NCBI GenBank assembly: GCA_016938235.1
Contig: JAFGVA010000136.1
Coordinates: 1-45,954, forward strand
DNA from: Bacteroidales bacterium
Lineage (GTDB): Bacteria; Bacteroidota; Bacteroidia; Bacteroidales; UBA10428
Length of the DNA: 45,954 nucleotides
Direction of reading: 5' to 3'
Positions 5,193 through 29,581 of the stretch are shown piece after piece (the first letter of the stretch is position 1; each line of letters begins with the position of its first letter). Made by a program: the position numbers and the translations under genes. The notes under the pieces were generated by a model. It had not been told where the DNA came from and did not search any database. It saw only the letters and a program-made list of their open reading frames with translations.

Positions 5193-7238
5193 TTAAAGCA
5201 ATTCTATGCTTCGTTTTACAAATTTCGACAACTCTTCGCCTTTAAGCATGTTATTAGCCAAAAGAGCAAGATCAATCAGTTGCTTAACCTGTTTGTTCTT
5301 CTTGCCAAATTTATTTAATACCTCTTGTTTCTTGTCCTTAAACTCCTTGATTTTCTTTTCCAGATCCTGAATCCTGTCTTTATCTTCCTGCTTTACTTCT
5401 TCGTCTTTCTTATCTTTATTTGCTTTTTCAAGATCAGCTTTATTGCTTTCCAGGGGTTTAATTTTTTCCTCAATCTTAAGAATTTCATCGAGCGATTTTT
5501 TCTCAAGGTCTTCGTTAATTTTAAGGATTAAGGGATGGTTACCGTTTATAACAAGATTGTAGCTGTCAGGTAATTCGCCATAAAAGTTCATGCCGCCTCC
5601 CAGGGCTGACATATCTTTCATTCTGCGCATGAATTCCGATTGGGTAATTACCAGCGGACTTTCAGTTTCTGATAAACCTTCGAACTGAACAATAAAATTG
5701 GCTTTGTCGGGTAACTGACCTCTGAAAACAGGAGTTAATCTTTCTCTTTGCTCTGAACTAAGCTTAATTTCTTTGTTTTCCTCTTTTTCAATAAGTTTAT
5801 CAGCAACATCTGCATCAACACGTACAAAGCGTGAATCTTTAAATTTCTGTTCAAGGTGATTAATGTAGTGCGTATCAAGCTGTCCGTCCATGATTAGTAC
5901 ATCGTAACCTTTGGAGCGTGCCGCATCGATAAAGCTGTACTGAGCGTCTTTATCTGAGGTATACAGGTAAACAAGATTCTTGTTTTTATCGGTCTGGTTT
6001 TCTTTAATCAGTTTTTCATACTCTTCGAATGTGAAATACTTACCCTCGGTATTTTTCAGAAGAGCAAATTTTTGAGCTTTCTCGTAGAATTTCTCTTCCG
6101 AAACCATTCCATATTCGATAAATAATTTAAGATTGTCCCATTTCTTTTCAAATTGTTCGCGATCGTTTTTGAAAATTTCTGCCAGTCTGTCGGCTACTTT
6201 CTTGGTGATGTGAGACGAGATTTTCTTCACATTTGAGTCGCTCTGAAGGTAGCTGCGCGAAACGTTCAGCGGAATGTCTGGCGAATCGATAATACCATGT
6301 AACAAGGTTAAGAATTCGGGTACAATTCCTTCTACAGAGTCGGTAACAAAAACCTGGTTGCAGTACAATTGTATTTTATTGCGCTGAATATCAATATTAT
6401 TCTTAATCTTTGGGAAATAAAGAATACCTGTGAGGTTAAACGGGTAATCAACATTCAGGTGAATATTGAAAAGCGGTTCTTCACCCATTGGGTAAAGTTC
6501 GTTGTAAAATTTTCCGTAGTCCTCATCTTTAAGATCTGCAGGTTTCTGAGTCCAGAGTGGATTCGGATTATTGATTATTTTATCCTTATCAAGCTCTACC
6601 TCTTTTCCGTCTTTCCACTCTTTTTGTTTTCCAAAGCCAATTTCTACCGGTAAGAATTTACAGTATTTGTTCAGCAGTTGGTTTATCTTGTTTTCTTCAA
6701 GAAATTCTTTAGAGTCTTTATCGATATGCAAAATTATTTGTGTACCCCTGGTTTCTTTGTTTGTATCTTCCAGTGAATACTCCGGACTACCATCGCATTC
6801 CCATTTTACAGCTTTTTCAGTTTCAATATACGATTTGGTTATTACTTCAACTTTTTTTGAAACCATGAAAGCGGAATAAAAACCTAAACCAAAATGCCCG
6901 ATTATGGCATTCGATTGGTTTTTGTATTTTTCGAGGAAATCTTCGGCACTGGAAAGAGCAATCTGGTTGATGTATTTTTTTACTTCTGCTTCAGACATTC
7001 CAATACCCTGGTCGGTGATGGTTAATGTCCCTTTCTTTTTATCAAGGTCAACACGAACGGTTAAATCTCCCAGTTCTCCTTTAAATTCGCCTGTGTTTGC
7101 CAGGGTTTTAAGTTTTTGAGTTGCATCAACAGCATTGGAAATTAGTTCACGCAAGAAGATTTCATGATCGGAATAGAGGAATTTTTTAATGATCGGAAAA
7201 ATATTCTCCGTGGTTACGCCAATTTTACCTTTTTCCAT
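5193..7238 (-). CDS. htpG: Molecular chaperone HtpG (Hsp90)
   Basis: A 681-residue Hsp90-family ATP-dependent chaperone acting on non-native proteins in the cytoplasm. The N-terminal GHKL ATPase domain shows its binding motifs: FLRELISNAVDA (ATP/Mg-binding Glu and Asn), DQGIGM, and GHFGLGFYSAFMV (lid/glycine motif). The middle domain contains the NVSRSYLQ segment with the catalytic-loop arginine, and the C-terminal dimerisation region ends in KRSIELL. I place the start at the ATG at 7236-7238 (MEKGKIGVTTENIF), the usual family N-terminus. An in-frame ATG 54 bases upstream would add an unconserved 18 residues. A highly charged, Lys/Glu-rich insertion precedes the last 50 residues, a coiled-coil-like stretch typical of Bacteroidota HtpG. 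It is transcribed alone and converges on the TonB receptor. Confidence 0.97.
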   Translation of the reverse strand: MEKGKIGVTTENIFPIIKKFLYSDHEIFLRELISNAVDATQKLKTLANTGEFKGELGDLTVRVDLDKKKGTLTITDQGIGMSEAEVKKYINQIALSSAEDFLEKYKNQSNAIIGHFGLGFYSAFMVSKKVEVITKSYIETEKAVKWECDGSPEYSLEDTNKETRGTQIILHIDKDSKEFLEENKINQLLNKYCKFLPVEIGFGKQKEWKDGKEVELDKDKIINNPNPLWTQKPADLKDEDYGKFYNELYPMGEEPLFNIHLNVDYPFNLTGILYFPKIKNNIDIQRNKIQLYCNQVFVTDSVEGIVPEFLTLLHGIIDSPDIPLNVSRSYLQSDSNVKKISSHITKKVADRLAEIFKNDREQFEKKWDNLKLFIEYGMVSEEKFYEKAQKFALLKNTEGKYFTFEEYEKLIKENQTDKNKNLVYLYTSDKDAQYSFIDAARSKGYDVLIMDGQLDTHYINHLEQKFKDSRFVRVDADVADKLIEKEENKEIKLSSEQRERLTPVFRGQLPDKANFIVQFEGLSETESPLVITQSEFMRRMKDMSALGGGMNFYGELPDSYNLVINGNHPLILKINEDLEKKSLDEILKIEEKIKPLESNKADLEKANKDKKDEEVKQEDKDRIQDLEKKIKEFKDKKQEVLNKFGKKNKQVKQLIDLALLANNMLKGEELSKFVKRSIELL

Positions 7239-7355
7239 AGTATATATTTTAATATTAGTTTCTGGCTCGAAGCTATTCAAAGCATGTGCCAAGCAGGTTT
7301 TGCTGACAAACAGTCATAAATAAATTTGAGAAAGGTTTTTTTTTCTGAAATTTTA

Positions 7356-18437: not shown

Positions 18438-21400
18438 ATGCAATTGAATAAAAATATAATAAAACTATTTGCGCTATTATATGCCTTCCTGATCGGAATA
18501 TCGAATTCTTACAGCCAGGACACAATCGCATTCTATAATTTCGATGATGGCAATACAACAGCATTTACAACAGGCGCACTGGGCCTCAATGGCGATTCAG
18601 ATAACAGAACTTCATGGGAAATCGGAATGCCTCAGGGAGGACAGGGTTACAATAATACCGTTAAACCCGGAGTTTTTGCAGGAAGTCTTGATCCTGTTGC
18701 CGACTACACAACCGGAAATACATTAAACTACGTTGCCGGCCAGGGATTATCAACCAGTAGTAAAAAAGAAGGAATTGCTGCCTATTACAGCAACTCTAAT
18801 GAATGGTTTCAGACTCCGGCAATAAATTGCTTAAACTATTTTAATGTTACCTTATCGTTTATGCAATGGGCTAACTTCGAACCAGGTTTTGATTTTCCAT
18901 CTGTTGAAGTTTCGAACGATGGTACAACATGGACTGCTGTTTATCAACCAGAAAGACTGGAACAAACATCATGGGAACAGGTTGAAATCAATATTGCTAA
19001 TTATGCCAGCAATCAGGCAACAGTTTATATACGTTGGAGAACCGAAAGCGACGAAGCAATTTTCTATTCAGGTTGGAATATCGATGATGTTTTATTTAAA
19101 GGCGACTACATATCAAACGATGCAGACTCATGGATAAGTTTCGGATCATCATTTCCATTGTCCATTTCATCGACCATCGACTCATATACCGAAAGAATTT
19201 CAATTGCAGATTTTACAATTAGTGATGCAGGCTCTGGCGATTTGCTTTCTACAATAATTGATACACTGGTTATTATTCAAAATCAGAACAACACCATTCC
19301 GAACTGGAGAAAAGCCATAGCTGGTGCATCTTTGTATGATCCGGAATCACATATCGAATTGGTAGGCAAAGTAGAACAAACCAGAATTTTTTTCACAAAT
19401 CAAAATTTATTGACCATAGCAGACGGCAGCTCCAGAAATTATATTCTAAGAATTTATCTAAACGTTAAATTATCTGAAATTTACGATAAGGATGTTTTAG
19501 GTCTGGAGATAAATTATGCAAATTTTAATACTTCTACAGCTGGTTCACAAATAAGTTCAGGCTCCGTATCATCGGCTTCAAACGAACTTGTGGTTGATAT
19601 TGCTGCGACTAAACTTACCTTTATTACAGAACCAGACCAACTGGTTGAGCAAAACAGAATTATTATGCCTCTTATTGAGGTTGCAGCCACCGATGCTAAT
19701 GGTAACATTGATACTGATTATCAAGGTACAATACAACTTTCGAACTCCAGCAGTCTTGCCATGAGCAATAATCAGGCTGCATTGGCAAATGGATTAGCTT
19801 CTTTTATTACATTTATCTTTAATGAAACTGGTGGACCTGTAAGATTAACTGCCGAAATTACCGATAAATCTCTTATGGGTGCCGAAAGTTCTGTTACCAT
19901 TACTATTTCTAAATCAATAGCCAATTATGTTTTCTTCGATAATTTTGATAATTCAGGAATTGCAGGGTGGACATCAGGAGCAATAACCGGAAGCTCTTCG
20001 TGGCAACAAGGTATTCCTATGGGCGGACAAGGATATTGTGATGTGATAGGAAGTAAAACATATATAGGAAATCCTGATCCTACTAGCGATCATTCTTCGA
20101 ATAATACAACCAACAAGGTTTATGGACAAGGTTTGGCTGCCAGCTCAAAATTTGAAGGCAATTCAGGTCATTATAATAATTCGAATGAATGGTTAATGAG
20201 CCCGGCAATAAATTGCAGCGAATACTATAATGTTCAGCTTAGTTTCTGGCGTTGGGCAAATATGGAGCCGGGAATCGATAAGGCTTTTGTAGAAATAAGT
20301 ACCGATGGTTCAAACTGGATTGATTTAGGTCATGACTTATATCCTGAGGATATCACCTGGACAAATGTTGTTTTTGATATTTCAACAATTGCCGACAGAC
20401 AGTCAACAGTATACATCCGCTGGAGAATGGAAAGCAACGGAAGCATCTTCTATTCCGGATGGAACATTGACGATGTTGAATTAAACGGAGTTTACTCACC
20501 TGTAACTACATGGACTGGTAATAGTTCGGAATACTGGTCGGATGCACAAAACTGGAGCACAGGAGTTGTTCCTAATGAGTTTTCCAGTGTAATTATTGAG
20601 GCAGGCACGACTTATTCTCCATCGGTTGTCAGCACCAACGCATACAGCAAAGAAATATTGATAAAACAGGGTGCAATATTAACCGTTGAGAGCGGTGGAA
20701 CACTCGACATTTTTGGTGATTTAACCATTGAGACCAGTTCCTCATCTTATGGTTCAGTAATAGATAAGGGCAATATTAATGTTAATGGAAATGGAATTAT
20801 GACCCGCTATCTTTCAGCCAGACGATGGTATTACCTTGCCTCTCCTTTCAAAAGTACATCAAGTGTATTGTTTGGACAAAATATTTATAAATACAACGAG
20901 GTTTCCGCAGCAGATGACTGGTCTTTAGGCTGGGAAGTTGTACTTAATGAGTCTTTGATGCCTGGTGTTGGATACGATGTGTTTACCTATGTAAACAAAG
21001 AAATTAATATGACAGGAGCTTTTAATACCGGAAATGTAAATATTAACTTAACATACACCGACGGTGCTGAAGTGGCTGAGCATGAAGGCTGGAACCTTAT
21101 TGGAAATCCTTATCCTTCGGCAATTGACTGGGATGCTCCAACGGGTTGGACCAGAACCAACATTAATAATGCTATTTATATCTGGAACGAAGAACAACAA
21201 AACTTCGTAACCTATGTCGGAGGAACAGGAGCAAACGGAGGTTCGCAGTACATACCACCTATGCAGGGTTTCTTTGTTAAAGTTTCAAGTCCCGGAAGCG
21301 GTTCAATAAATATGACTAATGAGGTCAGACACAACAATACAACAGTTAGTCTTAAATCGACTTTCAACTATAAAAATGAATTAAAATTTAAGCTTACCGG

Positions 21401-22289
21401 TAGTACTTATTCAGATGAGGCAGTTATAAAATTAAACAAAGATGCTACGGATGGATTTGACACACAATTCGATGCAGACAAGAAATTTTCAGATAACTCG
21501 TCTGTACCTCAGATCTATTCCTATGGTGAAAACACAAATCCTCTTGTAATAAACAGTCTTGAAGAAACAAAGGAATATAGAACAGTTAAACTGTACAGCT
21601 CTTTAAGCAATGCCGGAACATATACTCTGTCTGTCGAAGGTATGAATGATTTCGATTATTCGAAGACTTTATACCTCGAAGATCTGGTGCTGGATACTTT
21701 AATTGATTTAAACGAGACTAAAGTTTATAGTTTCGAAACAGATGCTATTACAGATTCTGTAAGATTTGTTGTACACATTGGCATGCCCCTGACTATGGAA
21801 TATGCTGTAAAGCATGTTAGCGAAGGAATGACTAATGATGGTGAAATAGACCTTACTATCAGGGGCGGAGCACAGCCAATTCTTTCAATAGAATGGTCAA
21901 ACGGTCAGGAACAGCCCGATTTGGAAGGAATTACAGCCGGAACATACATCGTTGTTGTAACAGATTATGATTTGAATACTTTAACTGATACAATTGTTGT
22001 TCTTCAAGATATTGGAGACGGCCAATTGATTTCTGTTAACGACTCGTCTGATTCTGACGGATATGATATAGTTTATAGTTCTGTTAATACAATTTCGGTA
22101 AAAACCATAAATGATTTTGTGTTCACAAAAGGAATATCCGTCTATGATTTATCGGGCCGAAATGTCTTTCAGGATAATTCACCGGAAATAGGTAGTTTTG
22201 AAATCTTACATAACCTGCCAGAGGGGATATATATTTTAACTCTGCACGGTAACTCCCGTATAGTTTCATACAAAATTCTGATTCATTAA
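18438..22289 (+). CDS. Large secreted multidomain protein with T9SS C-terminal sorting domain
   Basis: A 1283-residue exported protein. A signal peptide covers about residues 1-26 (YSQD follows). Residues 27-222 and 497-682 are two copies of the same jelly-roll-like module, each with RTSWEIGMPQGGQGYN-type and FYSGWNIDDV motifs. Between them, residues 390-490 look like an invasin- or filamin-type Ig domain (LTFITEPDQLVEQNRIIMPL). Residues 690-1120 hold the WTGNSSEYWSDAQNW segment seen in many Bacteroidota surface proteins. Residues 1125-1191 form a SprB-type repeat (IEWSNGQEQPDLEGITAGTY). Residues 1212-1283 are a type A T9SS sorting domain (ISVYDLSGRNVFQ, then LPEGIYILTL). Likely surface-exposed or released; adhesion is plausible, and no catalytic motif was seen. 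T9SS components themselves are not in this window. Confidence 0.88.
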   Translation: MQLNKNIIKLFALLYAFLIGISNSYSQDTIAFYNFDDGNTTAFTTGALGLNGDSDNRTSWEIGMPQGGQGYNNTVKPGVFAGSLDPVADYTTGNTLNYVAGQGLSTSSKKEGIAAYYSNSNEWFQTPAINCLNYFNVTLSFMQWANFEPGFDFPSVEVSNDGTTWTAVYQPERLEQTSWEQVEINIANYASNQATVYIRWRTESDEAIFYSGWNIDDVLFKGDYISNDADSWISFGSSFPLSISSTIDSYTERISIADFTISDAGSGDLLSTIIDTLVIIQNQNNTIPNWRKAIAGASLYDPESHIELVGKVEQTRIFFTNQNLLTIADGSSRNYILRIYLNVKLSEIYDKDVLGLEINYANFNTSTAGSQISSGSVSSASNELVVDIAATKLTFITEPDQLVEQNRIIMPLIEVAATDANGNIDTDYQGTIQLSNSSSLAMSNNQAALANGLASFITFIFNETGGPVRLTAEITDKSLMGAESSVTITISKSIANYVFFDNFDNSGIAGWTSGAITGSSSWQQGIPMGGQGYCDVIGSKTYIGNPDPTSDHSSNNTTNKVYGQGLAASSKFEGNSGHYNNSNEWLMSPAINCSEYYNVQLSFWRWANMEPGIDKAFVEISTDGSNWIDLGHDLYPEDITWTNVVFDISTIADRQSTVYIRWRMESNGSIFYSGWNIDDVELNGVYSPVTTWTGNSSEYWSDAQNWSTGVVPNEFSSVIIEAGTTYSPSVVSTNAYSKEILIKQGAILTVESGGTLDIFGDLTIETSSSSYGSVIDKGNINVNGNGIMTRYLSARRWYYLASPFKSTSSVLFGQNIYKYNEVSAADDWSLGWEVVLNESLMPGVGYDVFTYVNKEINMTGAFNTGNVNINLTYTDGAEVAEHEGWNLIGNPYPSAIDWDAPTGWTRTNINNAIYIWNEEQQNFVTYVGGTGANGGSQYIPPMQGFFVKVSSPGSGSINMTNEVRHNNTTVSLKSTFNYKNELKFKLTGSTYSDEAVIKLNKDATDGFDTQFDADKKFSDNSSVPQIYSYGENTNPLVINSLEETKEYRTVKLYSSLSNAGTYTLSVEGMNDFDYSKTLYLEDLVLDTLIDLNETKVYSFETDAITDSVRFVVHIGMPLTMEYAVKHVSEGMTNDGEIDLTIRGGAQPILSIEWSNGQEQPDLEGITAGTYIVVVTDYDLNTLTDTIVVLQDIGDGQLISVNDSSDSDGYDIVYSSVNTISVKTINDFVFTKGISVYDLSGRNVFQDNSPEIGSFEILHNLPEGIYILTLHGNSRIVSYKILIH

Positions 22290-22294
22290 ATCTA

Positions 22295-22325
22295 TTGAAT
22301 TCTTAACTTTTCTTTGGTAAATTTG
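22295..22325 (+). promoter_or_regulatory. Predicted promoter of the PID-CTERM-like mini-gene
   Basis: TTG at 22295-22297, a 20-base spacer, then TAAATTTG at 22318-22325, a full match to the Bacteroidota -7 consensus TAnnTTTG. The start codon of the small gene is 28 bases further on, which suggests it is transcribed separately from the large T9SS gene upstream. Confidence 0.55.
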
Positions 22326-22352
22326 TTAATACAAAAAGAGAAATTTATAGTC

Positions 22353-22520
22353 ATGAAGAATCTGAGGGGAATTGCATTGTTATTGCTGATATTAGCACCA
22401 GTTGTTTTACTGGGACAACCTGGGAATCCGCCGGCAGCTCCAATTCATGGAGTTGTTTATTTACTGGCTGCAGGGCTGGGATTTGGCATTCTCAAACTAA
22501 GAGAAAAGGGTAAGAAATAA
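22353..22520 (+). CDS. 55-residue PID-CTERM-like exosortase substrate
   Basis: I start this gene at the ATG at 22353, which gives a proper signal peptide (MKNLRGIALLLLILAPVVLL, then GQ). An earlier in-frame ATG at 22314 would lie inside the predicted promoter. After cleavage, only NPPAAPIHG remains before a hydrophobic segment (VVYLLAAGLGFGILKL) and a basic tail (REKGKK). That tripartite end (Pro-rich motif, membrane helix, basic cluster) is the pattern of PID-CTERM sorting tails of Bacteroidota, with His in place of the Asp of the PID motif. An exosortase is encoded about 1.9 kb downstream, which supports the reading. The mature product would be almost nothing but a linker. It may serve as a small surface-attached or released peptide. 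Function unknown. Confidence 0.75.
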   Translation: MKNLRGIALLLLILAPVVLLGQPGNPPAAPIHGVVYLLAAGLGFGILKLREKGKK

Positions 22521-22529
22521 TTTTTTCTG

Positions 22530-24212
22530 TTATTTAAAAACCTGGCTGAAAGGAACCGGCGTTTGTTGCTCCGATAAAATCATAATTTCATATGAACGAA
22601 ACTTTTCGCTTATAATACTTTTTGAATAGTTATTTGAGTCGAGTTTAAAACCCGAAATATCCAATACTGAATAAAACAGAAACTCGGTTGCTGTTTTCTT
22701 TTTTAGATTATTCCCAATTACATTTTCAATACCCGGGTTATACAATAGATATTCATCTGAAAACCATGCAATAAGAGGCACATGGTATAATTGTGGACTA
22801 AGGTTTTTAAATCCCCGCCCAAAGCCAATATTGGAGTTGTCAAATAAGTTTTCGCCATGGTCGGAACAATAAATCATAGCAGAGAAGGTATTACTTTGCC
22901 TGAGTGTTCGTATTACTTCCGAAAGAAAATAATCGGTATAAAGTATTGAATTATTATAACTATTTATAAGCTTCTGCCTGTTTCGGGCTGTAAAAATCAC
23001 ATGCTGATTTTTTTTCATATCGGGAACAAAACCTGCAAATTCATCAGGATACCTGTTTTGATAAGGGTAATGACTGCCATTAGTATGCAAAACAACAAAC
23101 AGGTTTTCAGGGTTTTCGTTAATAACAGACTGAAGTTTTTCTATCAACTCACCATCGTAGCAATTCTGATGGTAGCAATTTACCGTTTCAAACAAATCGG
23201 CTCTGACGGAAATAAACCCTATTTTATTAAACTGGTTGTGTTGTGTACTTAACCAAACTGTTTTAAACCCTGCTTCGTTATAATAATCAACTAAAGTAGG
23301 TGTAGTTTGAATTTTATCTGTCGAATCGGTTATTGAAAGAGGAGAGAGCATATAGGGTATGGTTCTTAGGGTAGTGAACGATGAACTGAAAACGGAGTCA
23401 AAAGAGAATATATTATTTTCATTTATGAGCCTGGGATTAGTCTTCTTTTTGTAACCGTTTAGTTGCCAATTATCATATCTCGACGATTCGCCAAGTACTA
23501 AAACATATACTTCCCTTTTATTTAATTGTGAATCTCTGTCGGTAATCTTTAAATCAAATTGTTTTTTTGTATAATCCGTAACTTTCTCTCTTCTCTTCCA
23601 GGCCTTATAAATGCTTCGATATACTCCATATGGTGTTTCTTCAAAATAGATTTGCACAGTATCTCCCGAAAAAAATGAGAATTCATTTTTTTGAACAGAA
23701 GAATACATTCCGGCAACCAGGAAAGATGCCAACAGACTTAAGATTAACACTATACGTGTTTTATACTGGAAATATATTTTGGTTTTACAGGATTTTACAA
23801 GCGACAGGAAAAACAATGCATAATAGGCAAACAAGAGTATAGCAATTCCCCACATACCGGAAATAAACTCAAAAACATCCTCTTTTGCTGCCGTTAAAAC
23901 AATAGTATAAAGTTGTTTTGGAGGCCACTCTTCAAAAATAAAAATAGCAAAGCTAAGTGCAGGGGTTATAATTATAAAAGGCAAAAACAAAAGCACAAGA
24001 ACAACAGGATTAACTTTATTTAGAACTAATCCGGGTACTAAAAACAAAACAAATGAAAGCAATAAATAAAAAACCGGTTTTAATAATAAATGAAAATCAA
24101 GCCCGAAAAGGGCAATTAAAAAAAATTCGAAATAGGGGTAAAAAACAAGGAAACCTAATAATAGAATCCAGACTTTATTTTCCGCTGTTTTTATAATTTG
24201 TTCATTCGGCAT
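22530..24212 (-). CDS. Phosphoethanolamine transferase-like membrane sulfatase-fold protein
   Basis: A 560-residue protein with about five hydrophobic helices in residues 14-170, then a periplasmic alkaline-phosphatase/sulfatase-fold domain. Family motifs: YVLVLGESSRYDNWQLNGY (metal-binding Glu242), the nucleophile region SSFTTLRTIPYML (Thr280 or Thr281, five to six residues before the Pro as in EptA), HTNGSHYPY, and YCSDHGENLFD near the end. EptA/CptA-type enzymes transfer phosphoethanolamine from phosphatidylethanolamine to lipid A, core sugars or other periplasmic acceptors. It converges on the PID-CTERM-like gene (nine bases between stops) and diverges from the exosortase gene, so it sits inside the exosortase locus. 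Whether it modifies lipid A or the sorting pathway's product is open. Confidence 0.85.
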   Translation of the reverse strand: MPNEQIIKTAENKVWILLLGFLVFYPYFEFFLIALFGLDFHLLLKPVFYLLLSFVLFLVPGLVLNKVNPVVLVLLFLPFIIITPALSFAIFIFEEWPPKQLYTIVLTAAKEDVFEFISGMWGIAILLFAYYALFFLSLVKSCKTKIYFQYKTRIVLILSLLASFLVAGMYSSVQKNEFSFFSGDTVQIYFEETPYGVYRSIYKAWKRREKVTDYTKKQFDLKITDRDSQLNKREVYVLVLGESSRYDNWQLNGYKKKTNPRLINENNIFSFDSVFSSSFTTLRTIPYMLSPLSITDSTDKIQTTPTLVDYYNEAGFKTVWLSTQHNQFNKIGFISVRADLFETVNCYHQNCYDGELIEKLQSVINENPENLFVVLHTNGSHYPYQNRYPDEFAGFVPDMKKNQHVIFTARNRQKLINSYNNSILYTDYFLSEVIRTLRQSNTFSAMIYCSDHGENLFDNSNIGFGRGFKNLSPQLYHVPLIAWFSDEYLLYNPGIENVIGNNLKKKTATEFLFYSVLDISGFKLDSNNYSKSIISEKFRSYEIMILSEQQTPVPFSQVFK

Positions 24213-24319
24213 ACTTAATATTGAATTCTAAATAAAAGTTTTAAGGTCACAGACAATTGACTAAATTTAAAGAATATATTTAATTTTACTTTGATAAATT
24301 AACATGGCAACTAAATCGC

Positions 24320-24351
24320 TTTGAATATTTTAGTATGTCGAAATAGAATTT
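24320..24351 (+). promoter_or_regulatory. Possible promoter of the exosortase gene
   Basis: TTTG at 24320-24323, a 20-base spacer and TAGAATTT at 24344-24351, which matches six of the eight positions of the TAnnTTTG box, counting the two free ones. It is placed about 35 bases before the exosortase start codon. The match is partial, so this is tentative. Confidence 0.3.
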
Positions 24352-24385
24352 ATAGCTTTAGACAATAATATTTTTCCCTCTCATA

Positions 24386-24946
24386 ATGAAGAGCCTGATT
24401 TTGAAATACAAGCAGTTTTTAAGCGAAAGAAGCAAACTTGATATTTTCCTTCTTAAAGGGTTTATACTGGCTTGTACTTATTTTGTTCTACGCATATTAT
24501 TTCGGGGTGTAGAAGCATTTAATGCCGTATTTCAATGGAGTAAACACCTGATGATAAATTTTTATTTAAAAACCAGCCAGTTTCTCATTGATAATCTGGG
24601 ATATGAAACTTTAAGCTATAATAACGTACTTAAAATTGCAGATTCCAATGGAATTAAAGTTGTAAATGCATGCATTGGCTGGTCAATCATGGCCTTGTTT
24701 ATTGGCTTTATCATCGCTTATCCGGGAACCAAAAAATCAAAATTCAGGATAATTCCACTTGGACTGGCAGCAATTATTCTGGCCAATATCCTCAGAATTA
24801 CCTTAATGGCCGTAATATCTTATGAATCTCCCGACAGCCTGCAATTCTATCACAGGTATATTTTTAACTTCATACTTTACCTGGTTGTTTTTGCCGCCTG
24901 GATATGCTGGATCAGAAGCAATAACAAGAATGAATTAGCTCAGTAA
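24386..24946 (+). CDS. Exosortase/archaeosortase family transpeptidase
   Basis: A 186-residue integral membrane protein with about five hydrophobic helices. The three catalytic residues of the family are all present in the right order: Cys96 in VVNACIGWSIMALFIGF, Arg137 in LANILRITLMAV, and His156 in LQFYHRYIFN. Exosortases cleave C-terminal sorting signals after membrane insertion and are thought to attach the protein to a lipid or glycan at the cell surface. The sequence is shorter than PEP-CTERM exosortases of Proteobacteria and resembles the compact Bacteroidota forms (XrtF/XrtX-like). I do not assign a subfamily. Its presumed substrate, the 55-residue PID-CTERM-like protein, is encoded 1.9 kb away. 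The convergent DUF2490 gene begins five bases after this stop. Confidence 0.92.
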   Translation: MKSLILKYKQFLSERSKLDIFLLKGFILACTYFVLRILFRGVEAFNAVFQWSKHLMINFYLKTSQFLIDNLGYETLSYNNVLKIADSNGIKVVNACIGWSIMALFIGFIIAYPGTKKSKFRIIPLGLAAIILANILRITLMAVISYESPDSLQFYHRYIFNFILYLVVFAAWICWIRSNNKNELAQ

Positions 24947-24951
24947 TGCTA

Positions 24952-25626
24952 TTATAATTCAAAAGTGATTTTCGCTGCAATTAGGTGCGATTTAAGCGGA
25001 TTAGTTTCAAAAAACTCATTTTGGAATTTATAATCCAGATCAAGAAACAAATTCTTGTCAATTTTGTAATTTACACCCAAAGTAAAACGGTATTTTTTTT
25101 CTTTGAGAACAAAATCAGGCTTGTGCAGAAAGAACAGTTCCATCGAAGTCTGTGGCCTGAGATTCCACCTTTTACGATAATAGCTTGCTGCAATTTTGTG
25201 CCTGTGTTCCTGGTAAGGCATATTTCCGTTAACACGACTGTTTATTCCAACATATTCCCACTGGTAAATAAAACGGTAATCAAGCCTCAATCGGTTAATT
25301 TTGGTATCGAATTTTCCGTACAGGCCAAAACGATTTACTATGTATGAATAGTCTTCCAGATTATTTTTCTTTTGAATTCTGTAACGGGCACCTGCTTTAA
25401 AGAAACTGGTTACGGGAACCGAAAAATCAAAATCGGCATGAATTGCTCTGACAGCACCCGAATTCCTGGTAAGCCTTATCTCCGGCGATATTTCAAAATC
25501 TATTAAATTGAAAGCTTCACCCTCTAATTCAGCAGCCCACCAAGTCTGAAAATCGGTACGTTGAGCAAAAGAATCTTTAGCAAAATACAATAACAAAAGA
25601 AATATAACTATGCAAAATCGCCTCAT
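24952..25626 (-). CDS. DUF2490 family outer-membrane beta-barrel protein
   Basis: A 224-residue protein with a signal peptide (LLLYFAKDSFAQ) followed by RTDFQTWWAAELEGEAFNLI, the usual start of DUF2490 proteins. Repeated amphipathic strands (RLDYRFIYQWEYVG, HRHKIAASYYRKRW, FTLGVNYKIDKNLFLDLDYK) and an end in AAKITFEL fit a small outer-membrane barrel of about ten to twelve strands. Function of the family is unknown. The start codon follows the stop of the upstream lipoprotein gene by one base, and that gene follows a CotH protein, giving a three-gene operon. Confidence 0.85.
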   Translation of the reverse strand: MRRFCIVIFLLLLYFAKDSFAQRTDFQTWWAAELEGEAFNLIDFEISPEIRLTRNSGAVRAIHADFDFSVPVTSFFKAGARYRIQKKNNLEDYSYIVNRFGLYGKFDTKINRLRLDYRFIYQWEYVGINSRVNGNMPYQEHRHKIAASYYRKRWNLRPQTSMELFFLHKPDFVLKEKKYRFTLGVNYKIDKNLFLDLDYKFQNEFFETNPLKSHLIAAKITFEL

Positions 25627-25627
25627 A

Positions 25628-26026
25628 TTAATCGATTATTGTAATAGTTTCAACTTCAACAACCTGGTCCTTACCGATAATCTCAACCTCTTTCATTATT
25701 GGCACAAGTTCGTTGGTATGTATAATATCGAGCGATTTCGACAAAACATAAACTTTATATTTTCCTTCTTGTAAATAGCTAAATTCATATTTCCCATCAT
25801 ATCCGGTCTGAAATTTATCGCCATATATTTCATCATCACCATAAATAATATACACATCAACATCCTGGGCAGCATAGGGATCTCCCACTTTAATGGTCAT
25901 ATCCTTATTATACTCCTGAACAAAAACACTTCCTTTAATACTTGAACTTCCGCCTCTGCCTTCAGATGTTTCGCATGCGGTTACCATTAATAAAACTGGA
26001 ATAATAAATAGGAAAAGCTTCTTCAT
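25628..26026 (-). CDS. Small lipoprotein with carboxypeptidase-regulatory-like (transthyretin) fold
   Basis: A 132-residue protein with a signal peptide and lipobox (MVTACETS, Cys18) followed by a Gly/Ser-rich spacer and a single beta-sandwich: IKGSVFVQEYNKDM, AAQDVDVYIIYGDDEIYG, FQTGYDGKYEFSYLQEGKYK and VYVLSKS. The GYDGKYEFSYLQEGKYKVYV core is the signature of the CarboxypepD_reg/SdrD-B-like prealbumin fold. Such domains bind or stiffen at the cell surface and have no catalytic role. It lies nine bases after the CotH protein gene and one base before the DUF2490 gene, so it is the middle member of an envelope operon. It may be the outer-membrane anchor for that group. Confidence 0.8.
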   Translation of the reverse strand: MKKLFLFIIPVLLMVTACETSEGRGGSSSIKGSVFVQEYNKDMTIKVGDPYAAQDVDVYIIYGDDEIYGDKFQTGYDGKYEFSYLQEGKYKVYVLSKSLDIIHTNELVPIMKEVEIIGKDQVVEVETITIID

Positions 26027-26035
26027 ATTGAATAA

Positions 26036-29000
26036 TTATTTAATAAACACGATTTTTTTAGTTATTACCTGGTACTTAATAATAAGACGTATAAAATACA
26101 CTCCACCCTTAATCGAGGAATCCGGAATCCACTCATTATTATAATCTCCATTTTCCAAAAACCTGTTTTCCAATACATTAACAACAGATCCCTGTATATT
26201 TAATATTTCTAATTTGACATGAGAACTTGTTTGCAGACTAAAATTAATTGTAATATAGTCAGAAAAACGCGTAGGGAAAACATTAAATTGTATATCGTTG
26301 TTGTCTTCAATATTAATTTCTGGGAGAACAGAGGTACCTGAATTCTTTTGACCGGGAGTTCCGAAAATACGGGTATTAGCTATCCAACTCTCAGCCTTTC
26401 CATTATCCATAGAGGCAGCCATAAGTTCAAGCGTTGCTCCGGTTCCGTTGGCTTCAAGAGGCCATGGACTGGTCGAAAGGTAATCAACGGCATCCATAAC
26501 TTCGTAATTTGCATTATACAGCCTTAACTCATCGCCCTTGCTGCTTAAGCCAAAGTCAAACTCACCGATTACATTTTTCACATCGGGGAAAACTTCTTCA
26601 AAATTTGAAATATTTTTTGAAAGTACTAAATAAGCTCCTGCATTCAGAACTGTACCTTCCGGAATGCCATATCCCGAATCAATTTCTGAATCGGTGAATA
26701 CATATCCGCCAATATTTGCCGTGGTATTGCTGTTGTTGTATATTTCAATCCAATCCGATGGATTAACATTTTGAGAACTGTTATAGTTAATTTCATTAAT
26801 AACAAGAGAAACATCTTCTTCGGCAGCTTCCTCAAAAACAGCATTAATCCATACGTTTTTCTCAGGATTATATTTCAGTACCCTGTTTGCTGAATTAACA
26901 TCTCCCTCCCAATGACTGAATTTATATCCCGGCAATGGTATTGCCTCAATTTCTACCGGAACATCTCTGAAATAAACTCCCGAAAATGGCAAATCTGGTT
27001 TTATTGTATTCAGGCGAATTCTTCCCATACTTTTGTTGGACACACTTAAACCAATAACATGTTGTGCCGAAAGATTAAAGGTTGTGCGGATATGTTGGCG
27101 CGCATAGTCAATTCTGTTATCGCCCCAGTCTTTCAACCTTTCAACCTGATAGCCCCAGTCGTTGTATGATTGATTCCAGCGAGGCAGATGATAAACCATT
27201 TCATCTTTAACAAGGTTTTTAATGGAATCTACATGCCTGTTAATGTTATCTGCCTGGAATGTTGTATTAATATTATCGGCCATCTGGTTAATAAAGTTGT
27301 TCCTGAATTCAAGATTTGTAACCAGCCTTCTGAACAGTAATGTTGACCATTCAGGATTCGGCCAGGCAGAGTTGTTTGGGGCCAATGCAAAATCAATAAA
27401 ATTTCTTGAATAATCACCGGCATCGTATAAGCCAAATCCAAAGTCGGTATCGTATAAAATCCATTTAAACTTGCTTCCTTCGCTATTGGTATTGTAATAT
27501 TTTATATTGTTTCCCGGCCAGTCGTTATTCCCCACATAAATTTCTATAAGCTGGTATTTGATAAAATTATCAATGTCAATTTTACTTGCAACGTAATCGT
27601 AATCCGCCTTATTGGCAAGCGAGGAATTAGTTTCAAGAAAATCAAGAAGCTCTAAATATCCTTCATTTGTTCCTTCAACAATAATTCCTTCATTCTCCAG
27701 AATATTAAACTCATCGGCATCAATACCACGATTTGCCTCCAGGTAATCTTCGTTTACTTTTTCGCGCATATTATACATGCCCCAATACTCAGCATTCAGA
27801 TACGCAACAACCGGCTGAAAAGCCTGATAATCAACACCAAGATGGCTGGTAAGATCGGTTATTAATCCATCACGCATGTATGCATTGTCCCAGTCGTTCC
27901 CACTATTTCGGATTATGAACGATTTATATTCCGAGAGGTCTTTTTGCTTAAAAAGCGGATATGAAAATTTATTCTTTCCGTAATTTTTCCGGGCAAAGAA
28001 TGCAAACGATTTCTGATCTCTAGCTCTGGACCAGGCACCAAATATTTTAGCACCTGAAAGTTGGTTAATAACCATGTTGCCATCTTCGTCATACAACTCA
28101 ATATTCATGGGTTTTTCCCAATCCATCCAGTAGTTGGCTCCAAAATGCGGATCAGAAGATTCGGCATTTGGCCCCAGTACATACATGCCATTGTTATAAT
28201 CCCAAAGATTATTCGGATCTGTACTTAAACAAATAACAGGCAGGTCTGCATGATGGTCAAAGAAGTATGTTCTGGAATTAATGTTACCCGATAAATATCC
28301 TTCTTTGAGTATTCTTGCCCGGACAATGGTATTGCCTGAAACAGAAATTTCTTCGCCCGAATATAAAACAGAGTTTTCAGACGGATCGGTTCCATCCACG
28401 GTATAATAAATCTGACCTTCGACCAATGCCGATAAACTTAAGGAAATGGTACTCTGGTAATATCCTCCTTTTTTGCTGAATACTATTGAATCGTCAGTTA
28501 GCATCTGATATACCAGATATTCATTCACTGAGCCTGGTGTTGGGTTTGCAAAATAGCCATATTCCGATTCCGTTCCGGTTACCTTACCGTATGAATAATC
28601 GGGGGGAATTACAACAGACGAAACACTATCGATAATCTCGGCCAATGAATTTGATAAAAATATTGTTTCACCCTCAGATTTTAATTTGAAATTGGTATGA
28701 GGAACACTCCGCCCTAAATTAAGAAAATCACTAACTGCATTATCCCCTTCGTCCAGTACTGTTTTGCCGAACGATAAAAAAGGAATTATGCTCAAATCTG
28801 AAGATGATGCACCAACATTGTGTACTTCAACACAAAACAGGTTTGTGCCTGTGTTTAGAACGTTAAGAAATGCACTGATATCAAACAACTCGGGTTGGCC
28901 TCCCTGCCACATTTGTGCTTCACGATCCAGGGATGTAAACTGGTCATAGGCCACCTCACTTCCGGCATCACCCAGATTTGCTCTCGCTACCTCCAAACCA

Positions 29001-29581
29001 TTTATATATGCAACAAAGCCATCGTCGTAATCAACATGCAACAAAGCTGAATTTGTTTTGGAAAGATTAGAAATCTCAAATTCTTTTCTCAGATAAATAC
29101 TGGTTACCGGAGGTGTTACAACTGTAGAGTCGTCCTCATCGGCATAACCGAATCCGCTTTTCCCCGATAACCATTCAGAATCATTATAAGCAGTGGTTTT
29201 CCATAACCAAGAAACAGTATCGGTCGGCACCAGGTAATTATATTCTTCGCCAACATCAATGGCCGTTGTCCAAACAGAAGGTAATACAGAAATATCTCTT
29301 CCTGAGGCGAAAATATATACAAATTCATTAGGCTGAAGCGATATTGCCGGTAAGGTCCACCTGGTTAACAATTTCCTGTCATCAGATAAAAACCAGCCTT
29401 CTAAATTTACTACAGAATCGGAATTATTAAATAATTCAATCCAATCAGGAAATTCTCCAAAATTATCCGAAATAGTTTGAACATTTGAGGATTGAATTTC
29501 ATTTATAATTACCTGGGCCGAAATTTGTTCAACAAAAGCATGAAAGAATAAAATGAAAACTATTTTAAAACCAGCCTTCAT
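26036..29581 (-). CDS. CotH kinase-family secreted protein with lamin-tail domains and T9SS signal
   Basis: An 1181-residue exported protein. Signal peptide about 1-22. A lamin-tail domain (VIINEIQSSNVQTISDNFGE) is split by a galactose-binding-like insert at about 95-265 (LLHVDYDDGFVAYINGLEVA). A chitobiase C-terminal-type domain follows at about 360-440 (IYYTVDGTDPSENSVLYSGE). The CotH domain covers about 446-800, with YWGMYNMREKVNEDYL and the active-site segment KWILYDTDFGFGLYD. A bacterial-repeat domain (PGYKFSHWEGDV) lies at 855-930, a second lamin-tail domain at 935-1090 and a T9SS type A sorting domain at the end. CotH proteins are atypical kinases; in Bacillus CotH phosphorylates spore-coat proteins. 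Here it may phosphorylate surface proteins. It leads an operon with a small lipoprotein and a DUF2490 barrel. Confidence 0.9.
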   Translation of the reverse strand: MKAGFKIVFILFFHAFVEQISAQVIINEIQSSNVQTISDNFGEFPDWIELFNNSDSVVNLEGWFLSDDRKLLTRWTLPAISLQPNEFVYIFASGRDISVLPSVWTTAIDVGEEYNYLVPTDTVSWLWKTTAYNDSEWLSGKSGFGYADEDDSTVVTPPVTSIYLRKEFEISNLSKTNSALLHVDYDDGFVAYINGLEVARANLGDAGSEVAYDQFTSLDREAQMWQGGQPELFDISAFLNVLNTGTNLFCVEVHNVGASSSDLSIIPFLSFGKTVLDEGDNAVSDFLNLGRSVPHTNFKLKSEGETIFLSNSLAEIIDSVSSVVIPPDYSYGKVTGTESEYGYFANPTPGSVNEYLVYQMLTDDSIVFSKKGGYYQSTISLSLSALVEGQIYYTVDGTDPSENSVLYSGEEISVSGNTIVRARILKEGYLSGNINSRTYFFDHHADLPVICLSTDPNNLWDYNNGMYVLGPNAESSDPHFGANYWMDWEKPMNIELYDEDGNMVINQLSGAKIFGAWSRARDQKSFAFFARKNYGKNKFSYPLFKQKDLSEYKSFIIRNSGNDWDNAYMRDGLITDLTSHLGVDYQAFQPVVAYLNAEYWGMYNMREKVNEDYLEANRGIDADEFNILENEGIIVEGTNEGYLELLDFLETNSSLANKADYDYVASKIDIDNFIKYQLIEIYVGNNDWPGNNIKYYNTNSEGSKFKWILYDTDFGFGLYDAGDYSRNFIDFALAPNNSAWPNPEWSTLLFRRLVTNLEFRNNFINQMADNINTTFQADNINRHVDSIKNLVKDEMVYHLPRWNQSYNDWGYQVERLKDWGDNRIDYARQHIRTTFNLSAQHVIGLSVSNKSMGRIRLNTIKPDLPFSGVYFRDVPVEIEAIPLPGYKFSHWEGDVNSANRVLKYNPEKNVWINAVFEEAAEEDVSLVINEINYNSSQNVNPSDWIEIYNNSNTTANIGGYVFTDSEIDSGYGIPEGTVLNAGAYLVLSKNISNFEEVFPDVKNVIGEFDFGLSSKGDELRLYNANYEVMDAVDYLSTSPWPLEANGTGATLELMAASMDNGKAESWIANTRIFGTPGQKNSGTSVLPEINIEDNNDIQFNVFPTRFSDYITINFSLQTSSHVKLEILNIQGSVVNVLENRFLENGDYNNEWIPDSSIKGGVYFIRLIIKYQVITKKIVFIK

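What the first reader, a model, noticed from the sequence alone, without database searches (positions are those of the whole stretch)
22295..24946. Compact exosortase locus with mini-substrate and an EptA-like transferase in between
Seen: a 186-residue membrane protein with the full exosortase triad (Cys96, Arg137, His156), a 55-residue protein with a signal peptide and a PID-CTERM-like tail, and between them an opposite-strand phosphoethanolamine-transferase-like enzyme. Known: exosortases and archaeosortases process tripartite C-terminal signals, and in haloarchaea ArtA-dependent lipid anchoring depends on genes for ethanolamine-type lipid synthesis. Inference: the transferase could modify the lipid or glycan to which the sorted product is joined, giving a three-part sorting and modification system that as far as I know is not described for Bacteroidota.
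Basis: partly seen in the sequence, partly recalled or inferred. Interest (0 to 1): 0.75.

Follow-up and report, generated by a model that had tools for sequence, protein, structure and literature searches.

The report
Movable exosortase and surface-protein cassette
A bacterium carries a small, apparently movable gene set that probably processes a tiny secreted peptide and decorates the cell surface; one gene of the set, an ethanolamine-phosphate transferase, may supply the chemical group to which the peptide is joined, but so far it is seen only in two related species.

Summary
The window has an exosortase with Cys96/Arg137/His156 (24386-24946 +), a 55-residue PID-CTERM-like mini-protein (22353-22520 +) and, between them on the minus strand, a full-length EptA-fold phosphoethanolamine transferase (22530-24212). 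Exosortase plus upstream PID mini-protein is a known Bacteroidota pair (NCBIfam XrtX/PID-CTERM); this is a divergent member, below both curated cut-offs. The transferase is not a general partner: among 101 exosortase loci it is seen only here and in one same-genus genome (G003), and presence in 344 genomes of the order shows no association (19 with both, 23.2 expected). Yet in G003 the same four-gene order recurs, not at the window's site, at 33-54% identity: it behaves as a moving cassette. In 26 of 51 loci a PID mini-protein has a close same-strand gene in front; 22 of these 26 end in a T9SS sorting domain. Most likely: a dedicated exosortase/PID surface-decoration cassette with a T9SS cargo and an accessory transferase. 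A GPI-like role for the transferase is possible but unproven.

The parts
18438..22289 (+). 1283-aa secreted protein with T9SS type A C-terminal sorting domain; Reelin-like and SprB-like repeats (hits below cut-off)
   Evidence: TIGR04183 35 bits, cut-off 23; repeats; homologs 50% (G003) and 46% (G015) identical, in G003 directly before a PID mini-protein, in G015 apparently so across a contig break
22318..22325 (+). TAAATTTG, Bacteroidota-type -7 box (consensus TAnnTTTG recalled) in the 63-bp gap: the mini-protein probably has its own promoter
   Evidence: such a box within 70 nt upstream of 30 of 52 mini-proteins, 2.5 expected from mononucleotide shuffles
22353..22520 (+). 55-aa PID-CTERM-like mini-protein: signal peptide (residues 1-21), payload QPGNPPAAPI (22416-22445), P-I-H-G motif (22440-22451), transmembrane stretch and basic tail (22452-22517)
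   Evidence: borders by rule and by eye; homologs in L051 and L088/L232
22530..24212 (-). 560-aa EptA/CptA-type phosphoethanolamine transferase, membrane domain plus periplasmic alkaline-phosphatase-fold domain; Thr281 (nucleophile position), Glu242, His376, His381, Asp451, His452 kept; no His in the segment around 464-466 where 21 of 21 non-cassette relatives aligned have one
24386..24946 (+). 186-aa exosortase, XrtX-like; catalytic Cys96 (24671-24673), Arg137 (24794-24796), His156 (24851-24853)

Best explanation
The block 18438-24946 is a movable surface-decoration cassette built around a dedicated (one enzyme, one substrate) exosortase of the XrtX/PID-CTERM kind. Steps: (1) the mini-protein is exported by Sec and loses its signal peptide (inferred from sequence); (2) the exosortase cuts near the P-I-x-G motif through a Cys acyl-enzyme, leaving a payload of only about ten residues (QPGNPPAAPI), and joins its new C-terminus to an amine on an envelope lipid or glycan (inferred from the superfamily; I saw no report of the reaction for an XrtX); (3) the EptA-fold transferase moves phosphoethanolamine from phosphatidylethanolamine onto an envelope lipid or glycan (fold and most catalytic residues shown; donor and acceptor inferred) and so supplies, or tunes, the acceptor in this genus; (4) the 1283-aa T9SS protein is exported by the type IX system and acts at the surface together with the peptide-capped lipid or glycan (genetic linkage shown, joint action inferred; the type IX machinery of this genome was not searched for). 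The cassette linkage is well supported; the biochemical role of the transferase is the least certain step (about 0.35 that it serves the exosortase acceptor).
For: Same order and strands of all four genes in G003, while G003's site between the PALP gene and the DUF2490 gene lacks the block (L215) and G008 has another gene there (L216): the block moved as a unit. Identity G000/G003: block genes 49% (T9SS), 54% (mini, 46 aligned), 35% (transferase), 33% (exosortase, N-terminal 66 aa) against 62-77% for the three genes before the block. Own genome: one exosortase match and one credible PID mini-protein. PID mini-protein upstream on the same strand in 50 of 96 non-redundant exosortase loci. T9SS sorting domain on 22 of 26 close upstream neighbours of PID mini-proteins against 15 of 50 other large genes; with another model 19 of 25 against 14 of 382. 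In L126, L149 and L170 the mini-protein is oriented with a T9SS-domain gene and against the exosortase, and in G015 giant and mini-protein appear to adjoin while the exosortase is on another contig. Transferase: full-length EptA fold. Amine precedent: rhombosortase product carries glycerophosphoethanolamine (PMC6219818, passages); ArtA maturation involves PssA/PssD (PMC7157517, passages).
Against: Only two genomes show the four-gene block, both of one genus; G003's copy is cut by a contig end inside the exosortase, lies on a 6-kb contig of a 66% complete assembly, and could in principle be misbinned. Low identity is not peculiar to the block: DUF2490 beside the site is 42% identical, the lipoprotein 61%, DUF2062 68%. 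G015 (90% complete) has giant, mini-protein and exosortase but no transferase at E <= 1e-10. No genome-level association of transferases in general with exosortases in the order (19 with both, 23.2 expected). 25 of 51 PID mini-proteins lack a close same-strand upstream gene; 43 of 96 exosortase loci show no PID mini-protein by my model. Other genomes of the order have up to five PID matches over the cut-off (G149), so one-to-one pairing is not general. Cleavage, conjugation and acceptor are not shown by any search. Subfamily cut-offs for XrtX and PID-CTERM are not reached.
Confidence: 0.55

Rival explanations
1. The transferase is a passenger: an ordinary lipid A or core phosphoethanolamine transferase that landed between mini-protein and exosortase in an ancestor of this genus and does general envelope modification. 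The exosortase, mini-protein and T9SS protein work without it.
For: Not found in G015 nor in 99 of 101 exosortase neighbourhoods; no co-occurrence in the order; EptA relatives are frequent (59 of 344 genomes), so a chance landing is possible; it is on the opposite strand.
Against: Order and strands kept at 35% identity, in two genomes at different sites; both cassette transferases share a GFGRGF..LSP segment without the His that 21 of 21 others aligned have, so they look like one distinct branch.
Confidence: 0.33
2. The transferase modifies the anionic lipopolysaccharide to which the T9SS sortase attaches the giant protein, and so serves the giant rather than the exosortase.
For: The giant is part of the cassette; T9SS cargos of P. 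gingivalis are attached to A-LPS, and some phosphoethanolamine is reported in its core (PMC7468200, passages); the transferase fold is that of an LPS enzyme.
Against: G015 has the giant and no transferase was found; a second T9SS-domain protein at 26036-29581 has no such enzyme beside it.
Confidence: 0.2
3. The mini-protein is not cargo: it stays as an uncleaved small membrane protein that regulates or chaperones the exosortase or the giant.
For: A payload of about ten residues is hardly a protein; mini-proteins are 50-104 aa in 53 loci, payload median 18.5 in the 50 where a rough rule gave one.
Against: The C-terminal signal with P-[IV]-[DGH]-G-like motif and basic tail recurs after different payloads, as expected of a processing site; some genomes have several PID proteins, five over the cut-off in G149.
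Confidence: 0.15

Closest known systems
XrtX / PID-CTERM system of Bacteroidota (NCBIfam NF046081, NF046080, NF046082)
   Same: Short exosortase; PID-type mini-protein on the same strand upstream; relatives in L100, L115, L132 and L138 pass the XrtX cut-off.
   Different: Here both scores are below cut-off, the motif is PIHG rather than PIDGG, a transferase separates mini-protein and exosortase, and the XrtX-associated membrane protein NF046082 was not found in G000, G003 or G015.
EptA/CptA/MCR-type phosphoethanolamine transferases
   Same: Full-length fold and catalytic residues incl. the nucleophile Thr.
   Different: No His at or near the position of residue 465 of Neisseria EptA (Phe464 by the pairwise alignment, Arg466 by the multiple alignment); the cysteines flanking the nucleophile in 5fgn are Ser and Tyr; linked to an exosortase.
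Haloarchaeal ArtA with PssA/PssD
   Same: Sorting enzyme of the same superfamily (TIGR04178 spans both) linked with ethanolamine-lipid enzymes (PMC7157517, passages).
   Different: PssA/PssD make the lipid itself; an EptA-type enzyme moves the phosphoethanolamine head group onto another acceptor.
Rhombosortase / GlyGly-CTERM of Vibrio
   Same: C-terminal cut and glycerophosphoethanolamine adduct, likened to GPI anchors by its authors (PMC6219818, passages).
   Different: Rhomboid-type protease; larger cargo (VesB); type II secretion.
Exosortase XrtF of Flavobacterium johnsoniae
   Same: Short Bacteroidota exosortase; its deletion, and that of its neighbour gene, gave less sand colonisation, much less biofilm and no zorbs (PMC10936215, passages with table).
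   Different: Targets not known (PMC12188702, passages); the window enzyme scores 61 bits against XrtF's cut-off of 90.

Membership tests
Exosortase/archaeosortase superfamily | Score over TIGR04178 and PF09721 cut-offs | tested here: met
   59.1 > 23 and 35.3 > 25.7
Exosortase/archaeosortase superfamily | Cys/Arg/His catalytic triad (recalled) | tested here: met
   C96 and R137 invariant, H156 in 90% or more of 11 sequences
Exosortase/archaeosortase superfamily | Cleaves and joins its substrate | not testable with these tools
   no experiment
XrtX (NF046081) | Curated cut-off 170 bits | tested here: not met
   112 bits, still the best subfamily
XrtX (NF046081) | XrtX-associated membrane protein NF046082 in the genome | tested here: inconclusive
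   none at E <= 0.001 in G000, G003, G015; but also none in 8 of 9 other order genomes with strong exosortase-profile matches, the ninth having 23.9 bits against the cut-off of 75
PID-CTERM (NF046080) | Curated cut-off 26 bits | tested here: not met
   22.2 bits, 22.9 in the genome scan
PID-CTERM (NF046080) | Signal peptide, motif, transmembrane stretch, basic tail, near an exosortase | tested here: met
EptA-type phosphoethanolamine transferase | Fold and zinc/nucleophile residues | tested here: met
   residue roles from PMC5893884 (passages)
EptA-type phosphoethanolamine transferase | Second-site residue 465 (His in the Neisseria sequence) | tested here: not met
   no His in the segment in window and L051; His in 21 of 21 others of the alignment; model confidence is low there (block 461-470 pLDDT 60)
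EptA-type phosphoethanolamine transferase | Curated cut-off of any of the 19 NCBIfam models matched | tested here: not met
   best E-value: 223.8 bits of 500
T9SS type A cargo | TIGR04183 C-terminal domain over cut-off, Sec signal | tested here: met
   35.3 > 23 at residues 1218-1282; signal read by eye; Pfam Por_Secre_tail only 20.2 of 27
GPI-like attachment (phosphoethanolamine amine as nucleophile) | Peptide C-terminus amide-linked to phosphoethanolamine | not testable with these tools
   needs mass spectrometry

The most novel reading that the evidence does not exclude
A bacterial counterpart of GPI-anchor logic in four movable genes: an alkaline-phosphatase-fold transferase (the superfamily of the eukaryotic GPI phosphoethanolamine transferases, recalled) puts phosphoethanolamine on a membrane glycan or lipid, the exosortase uses that amine to accept the cut C-terminus of a ten-residue peptide, and the peptide-capped anchor serves as surface partner of a T9SS giant.
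Probability: 0.17. Interest if true: 0.85.

Novelty: new variant of a known kind. Interest (0 to 1): 0.5.

Why it matters
The compound to which exosortases join their substrates is called unidentified in a passage read here (PMC7468200). A cassette that keeps an amine-transferring enzyme beside an exosortase whose product should be about ten residues long gives a short target, convenient for mass spectrometry, with which to find out. The recurring T9SS-domain protein before PID mini-proteins links two Bacteroidota surface systems and suggests a partner for exosortases whose substrates are still sought (PMC10936215, PMC12188702; passages). Whether others have noted that link I cannot say: one search listed 20 of 243 papers, and only two of the listed ones held the word exosortase.

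Tried and rejected
Rejected: further PID proteins in the own genome. One search gave two weaker matches; one lies in what reads by eye like a DnaK-type tail, the other in a 1032-codon frame that I did not read further. Rejected: transferase as a general exosortase partner. G339 has a transferase about 600 bp from an exosortase, but with a peroxiredoxin gene between them (named by eye), a different-looking exosortase and no PID match; among 19 genomes with both I count this as weak. Sequence and fold searches found no solved exosortase (no hit at E <= 0.1; no match at E <= 0.001). Papers: no hit for PID-CTERM, four unrelated for XrtX/XrtY, none for exosortase with EptA, one unrelated for exosortase with GPI and transamidase (listing only). 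These cover only the open library; Haft 2012 is not held.

Limits and rows dropped: of 28 exosortase matches outside the own genome, 20 were fetched with flanks. Flanks differ: some loci hold only a few hundred bases on one side. Five of 101 loci were duplicates and were dropped before counting PID neighbours. Two of 53 PID loci had no usable upstream gene. 15 of 65 control genes were not scanned. One of 53 mini-proteins had too little upstream sequence for the promoter count. In one search only the 25 most frequent of 280 families are printed, so 'at most one of 25' is what can be stated for the other upstream genes; one of these (L170) does end in a T9SS-like domain by eye and by my model. 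Some of the 26 upstream genes are cut by a locus end (L132, L150, L153), and L150 holds a run of N. Related loci are not independent: at 55% exosortase identity the 51 loci form 18 groups, 12 with a close same-strand upstream gene; at 45%, 7 and 6. Only 30 loci came back for the transferase search of the order; for the other matches adjacency was judged by eye from the coordinates. The co-occurrence test counts transferases of any branch, not the cassette branch alone.

Full report
Observation. The three genes are real and placed as stated. The exosortase passes the superfamily models but not the XrtX subfamily cut-off (112 of 170 bits). Cys96 and Arg137 are invariant, His156 nearly so, in the window sequence and ten relatives; an AlphaFold model is confident (pLDDT 88), with no similar solved structure found. 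The mini-protein has 55 residues; after a signal peptide of about 21 residues the payload is QPGNPPAAPI, followed by a PIHG motif, a hydrophobic stretch and a basic tail; PID_CTERM scores 22.2 bits, below its cut-off of 26. The minus-strand enzyme is a complete EptA-type protein: 5fgn at E 4e-45, model TM 0.72 to the full-length Neisseria enzyme.

The transferase. By alignment with Neisseria EptA the nucleophile Thr, the Glu/Asp/His zinc positions and both histidines of the LHTxGSH segment are kept (roles from PMC5893884, passages). The His that corresponds to residue 465 of Neisseria EptA is missing: the window has Phe464 there by the pairwise alignment and Arg466 by the multiple alignment, in which L051 also has Arg and 21 of 21 other relatives have His. 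The segment holds no His either way, and the model is uncertain there. PMC5893884 lists position 465 (printed variously as H465, D465 and H456) among those whose Ala variant failed to modify lipid A (passages). So the cassette enzymes look like a distinct branch whose acceptor may not be lipid A; that last step is inference.

Known pair. A scan of one genome for each of 84,980 species with an alignment of eleven exosortases (one peptide pattern) kept 80 of 176 relatives. With 20 loci from relatives of the window genome and the window this makes 101; Ept-like genes occur in two of them, the window and L051. After removal of five duplicates, 53 of 96 have a PID-like mini-protein within 2.5 kb; in 50 it is on the same strand upstream, in 48 of these within 212 bp; the other two are the window and L051, with the transferase between. 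Four of the exosortases tested pass the XrtX cut-off, and four of five downstream genes tested match the XrtX-associated membrane protein, under its cut-off. The exosortase and mini-protein of the window are thus a divergent member of a pair that NCBIfam already names. I found no paper on it in the open library.

A cassette. In G003, a genome of the same genus, contig C183 carries, in order, a homolog of the window's 1283-residue T9SS protein, a PID mini-protein, the transferase on the minus strand and the start of an exosortase, cut by the contig end. Identities are 49%, 54%, 35% and 33%, against 77%, 67% and 62% for the three genes before the block; behind the block DUF2490 is 42% identical, so low identity alone says little. 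In G003 the three genes are followed directly by a small DUF2062 gene, DUF2490 and the SdrD_B-like lipoprotein: the window's site without the block; in G008 the site holds a 1128-residue protein that by eye looks like a hybrid regulator. The block is therefore not at the window's site in G003; where it lies there is unknown, and misbinning of a 6-kb contig cannot be excluded. G015, of the same family, has the T9SS protein and the mini-protein apparently side by side across a contig break, an exosortase 43% identical to the window's on another contig, and no transferase at E <= 1e-10. Near full-length homologs of the giant were found in these three of 23 family genomes; two more have partial matches. 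G008 and G013 have longer exosortases of weak similarity; G013's also has a mini-protein and an 1842-aa gene in front.

Is the transferase a partner? For: the conserved block. Against: in 344 genomes of the order, 59 have a transferase (E <= 1e-20) and 135 an exosortase (E <= 1e-10); 19 have both, 23.2 expected, p 0.24. None of 29 other transferase loci returned by the order search has an exosortase within about 1.5 kb, nor do the six added by the class search, and none of 29 other exosortase loci has a transferase in its flanks. By the coordinates only G339, besides the window genome, has both close together, and there they look unrelated to this system.

The T9SS protein. Clustering the neighbours of the 101 exosortases gave, after the exosortase itself, a group of mostly large proteins in 26 loci, window and L051 included, 23 of 29 on the exosortase's strand, about 3 kb upstream at the median. 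Independently of that group, of 51 PID mini-proteins with a readable upstream gene, 26 have one on the same strand within 200 bp, mostly of 800 to 2600 residues; 22 of these 26 carry TIGR04183, against 15 of 50 other genes of 600 residues or more in the same loci (p 7e-6) and at most one of 25 upstream genes of the remaining loci. A sorting-domain model built from four other proteins of these loci finds 33 domains among 407 genes of at least 250 residues: 19 of 25 close upstream genes, 14 of 382 others. Of 18 exosortase groups at 55% identity, 12 show a close same-strand upstream gene. In L126, L149 and L170 the mini-protein follows a T9SS-domain gene and is oriented against the exosortase, so the mini-protein goes with that gene. 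Of six such proteins scanned with Pfam, three have SprB, PKD or fibronectin repeats and five Por_Secre_tail (one of them under its cut-off); L100 has no hit. 30 of 52 mini-proteins have TAnnTTTG (the Bacteroidota -7 box, recalled) within 70 nt upstream, 2.5 expected from shuffles: they are probably transcribed on their own too.

Mechanism. Shown: gene content, order, conservation, folds, catalytic residues. Inferred: the exosortase cuts the mini-protein near PI-HG and joins the ten-residue payload to an amine in the envelope. Precedents: rhombosortase substrate carries a glycerophosphoethanolamine adduct, which its authors compare with GPI anchors (PMC6219818, passages), and ArtA maturation involves PssA/PssD, with archaetidylethanolamine proposed as the nucleophile (PMC7157517, passages). 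A phosphoethanolamine transferase beside an exosortase would fit: it can place such an amine on a chosen glycan or lipid. It could equally modify the LPS to which the T9SS protein is attached (PMC7468200, passages), or be a passenger. I give these roughly 0.35, 0.2 and 0.33, the rest other.

Verdict. The pair is known, the transferase is a genus-level addition in an apparently moving cassette, and the unnoticed T9SS protein is the more general partner. New variant of a known kind.

Noticed in passing
L126, L149, L170, L158, L115, L163 and others; window 18438-22520: T9SS type A proteins, mostly large, lie directly before PID-CTERM mini-proteins in many Bacteroidota loci, also where the exosortase is oriented the other way.
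   Followed up: yes
L221 7679-10406 (G339): Another transferase/exosortase neighbourhood in the order, with a peroxiredoxin-like gene between them and no PID match.
   Followed up: partly
L053 8922-15831 (G013): A 347-aa exosortase of another type in the same family, with a mini-protein ending in a PLDGG motif, hydrophobic stretch and basic tail, and an 1842-aa gene upstream.
   Followed up: partly
control genes: 10 of 50 large genes around PID/exosortase loci match polysaccharide tyrosine kinase (Wzc) models, so many of these loci lie in exopolysaccharide clusters; the Pfam hits in the window do not suggest one there.
   Followed up: no
window 24952-29581: DUF2490 protein, SdrD_B-like lipoprotein and 1181-aa CotH-kinase/lamin-tail/T9SS protein; the trio is conserved in G008 (L216); in G003 (L215) the first two are there and no CotH gene follows.
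   Followed up: partly
window 5193-7292: HSP90-family ATPase of 699 codons from a TTG start (PF00183 179 bits over residues 227-606); not looked at further.
   Followed up: no
L216 5175-8561 (G008): A 1128-aa gene, by eye a hybrid two-component regulator, occupies the window cassette's site in another species of the genus; the site may be prone to insertions.
   Followed up: no
L051 4047-5723 and window 22530-24212: Cassette transferases share a GFGRGF..LSP segment that lacks the His present in 21 of 21 other aligned relatives.
   Followed up: yes
L170 7085-10202: Two PID mini-proteins follow one T9SS-domain gene.
   Followed up: no
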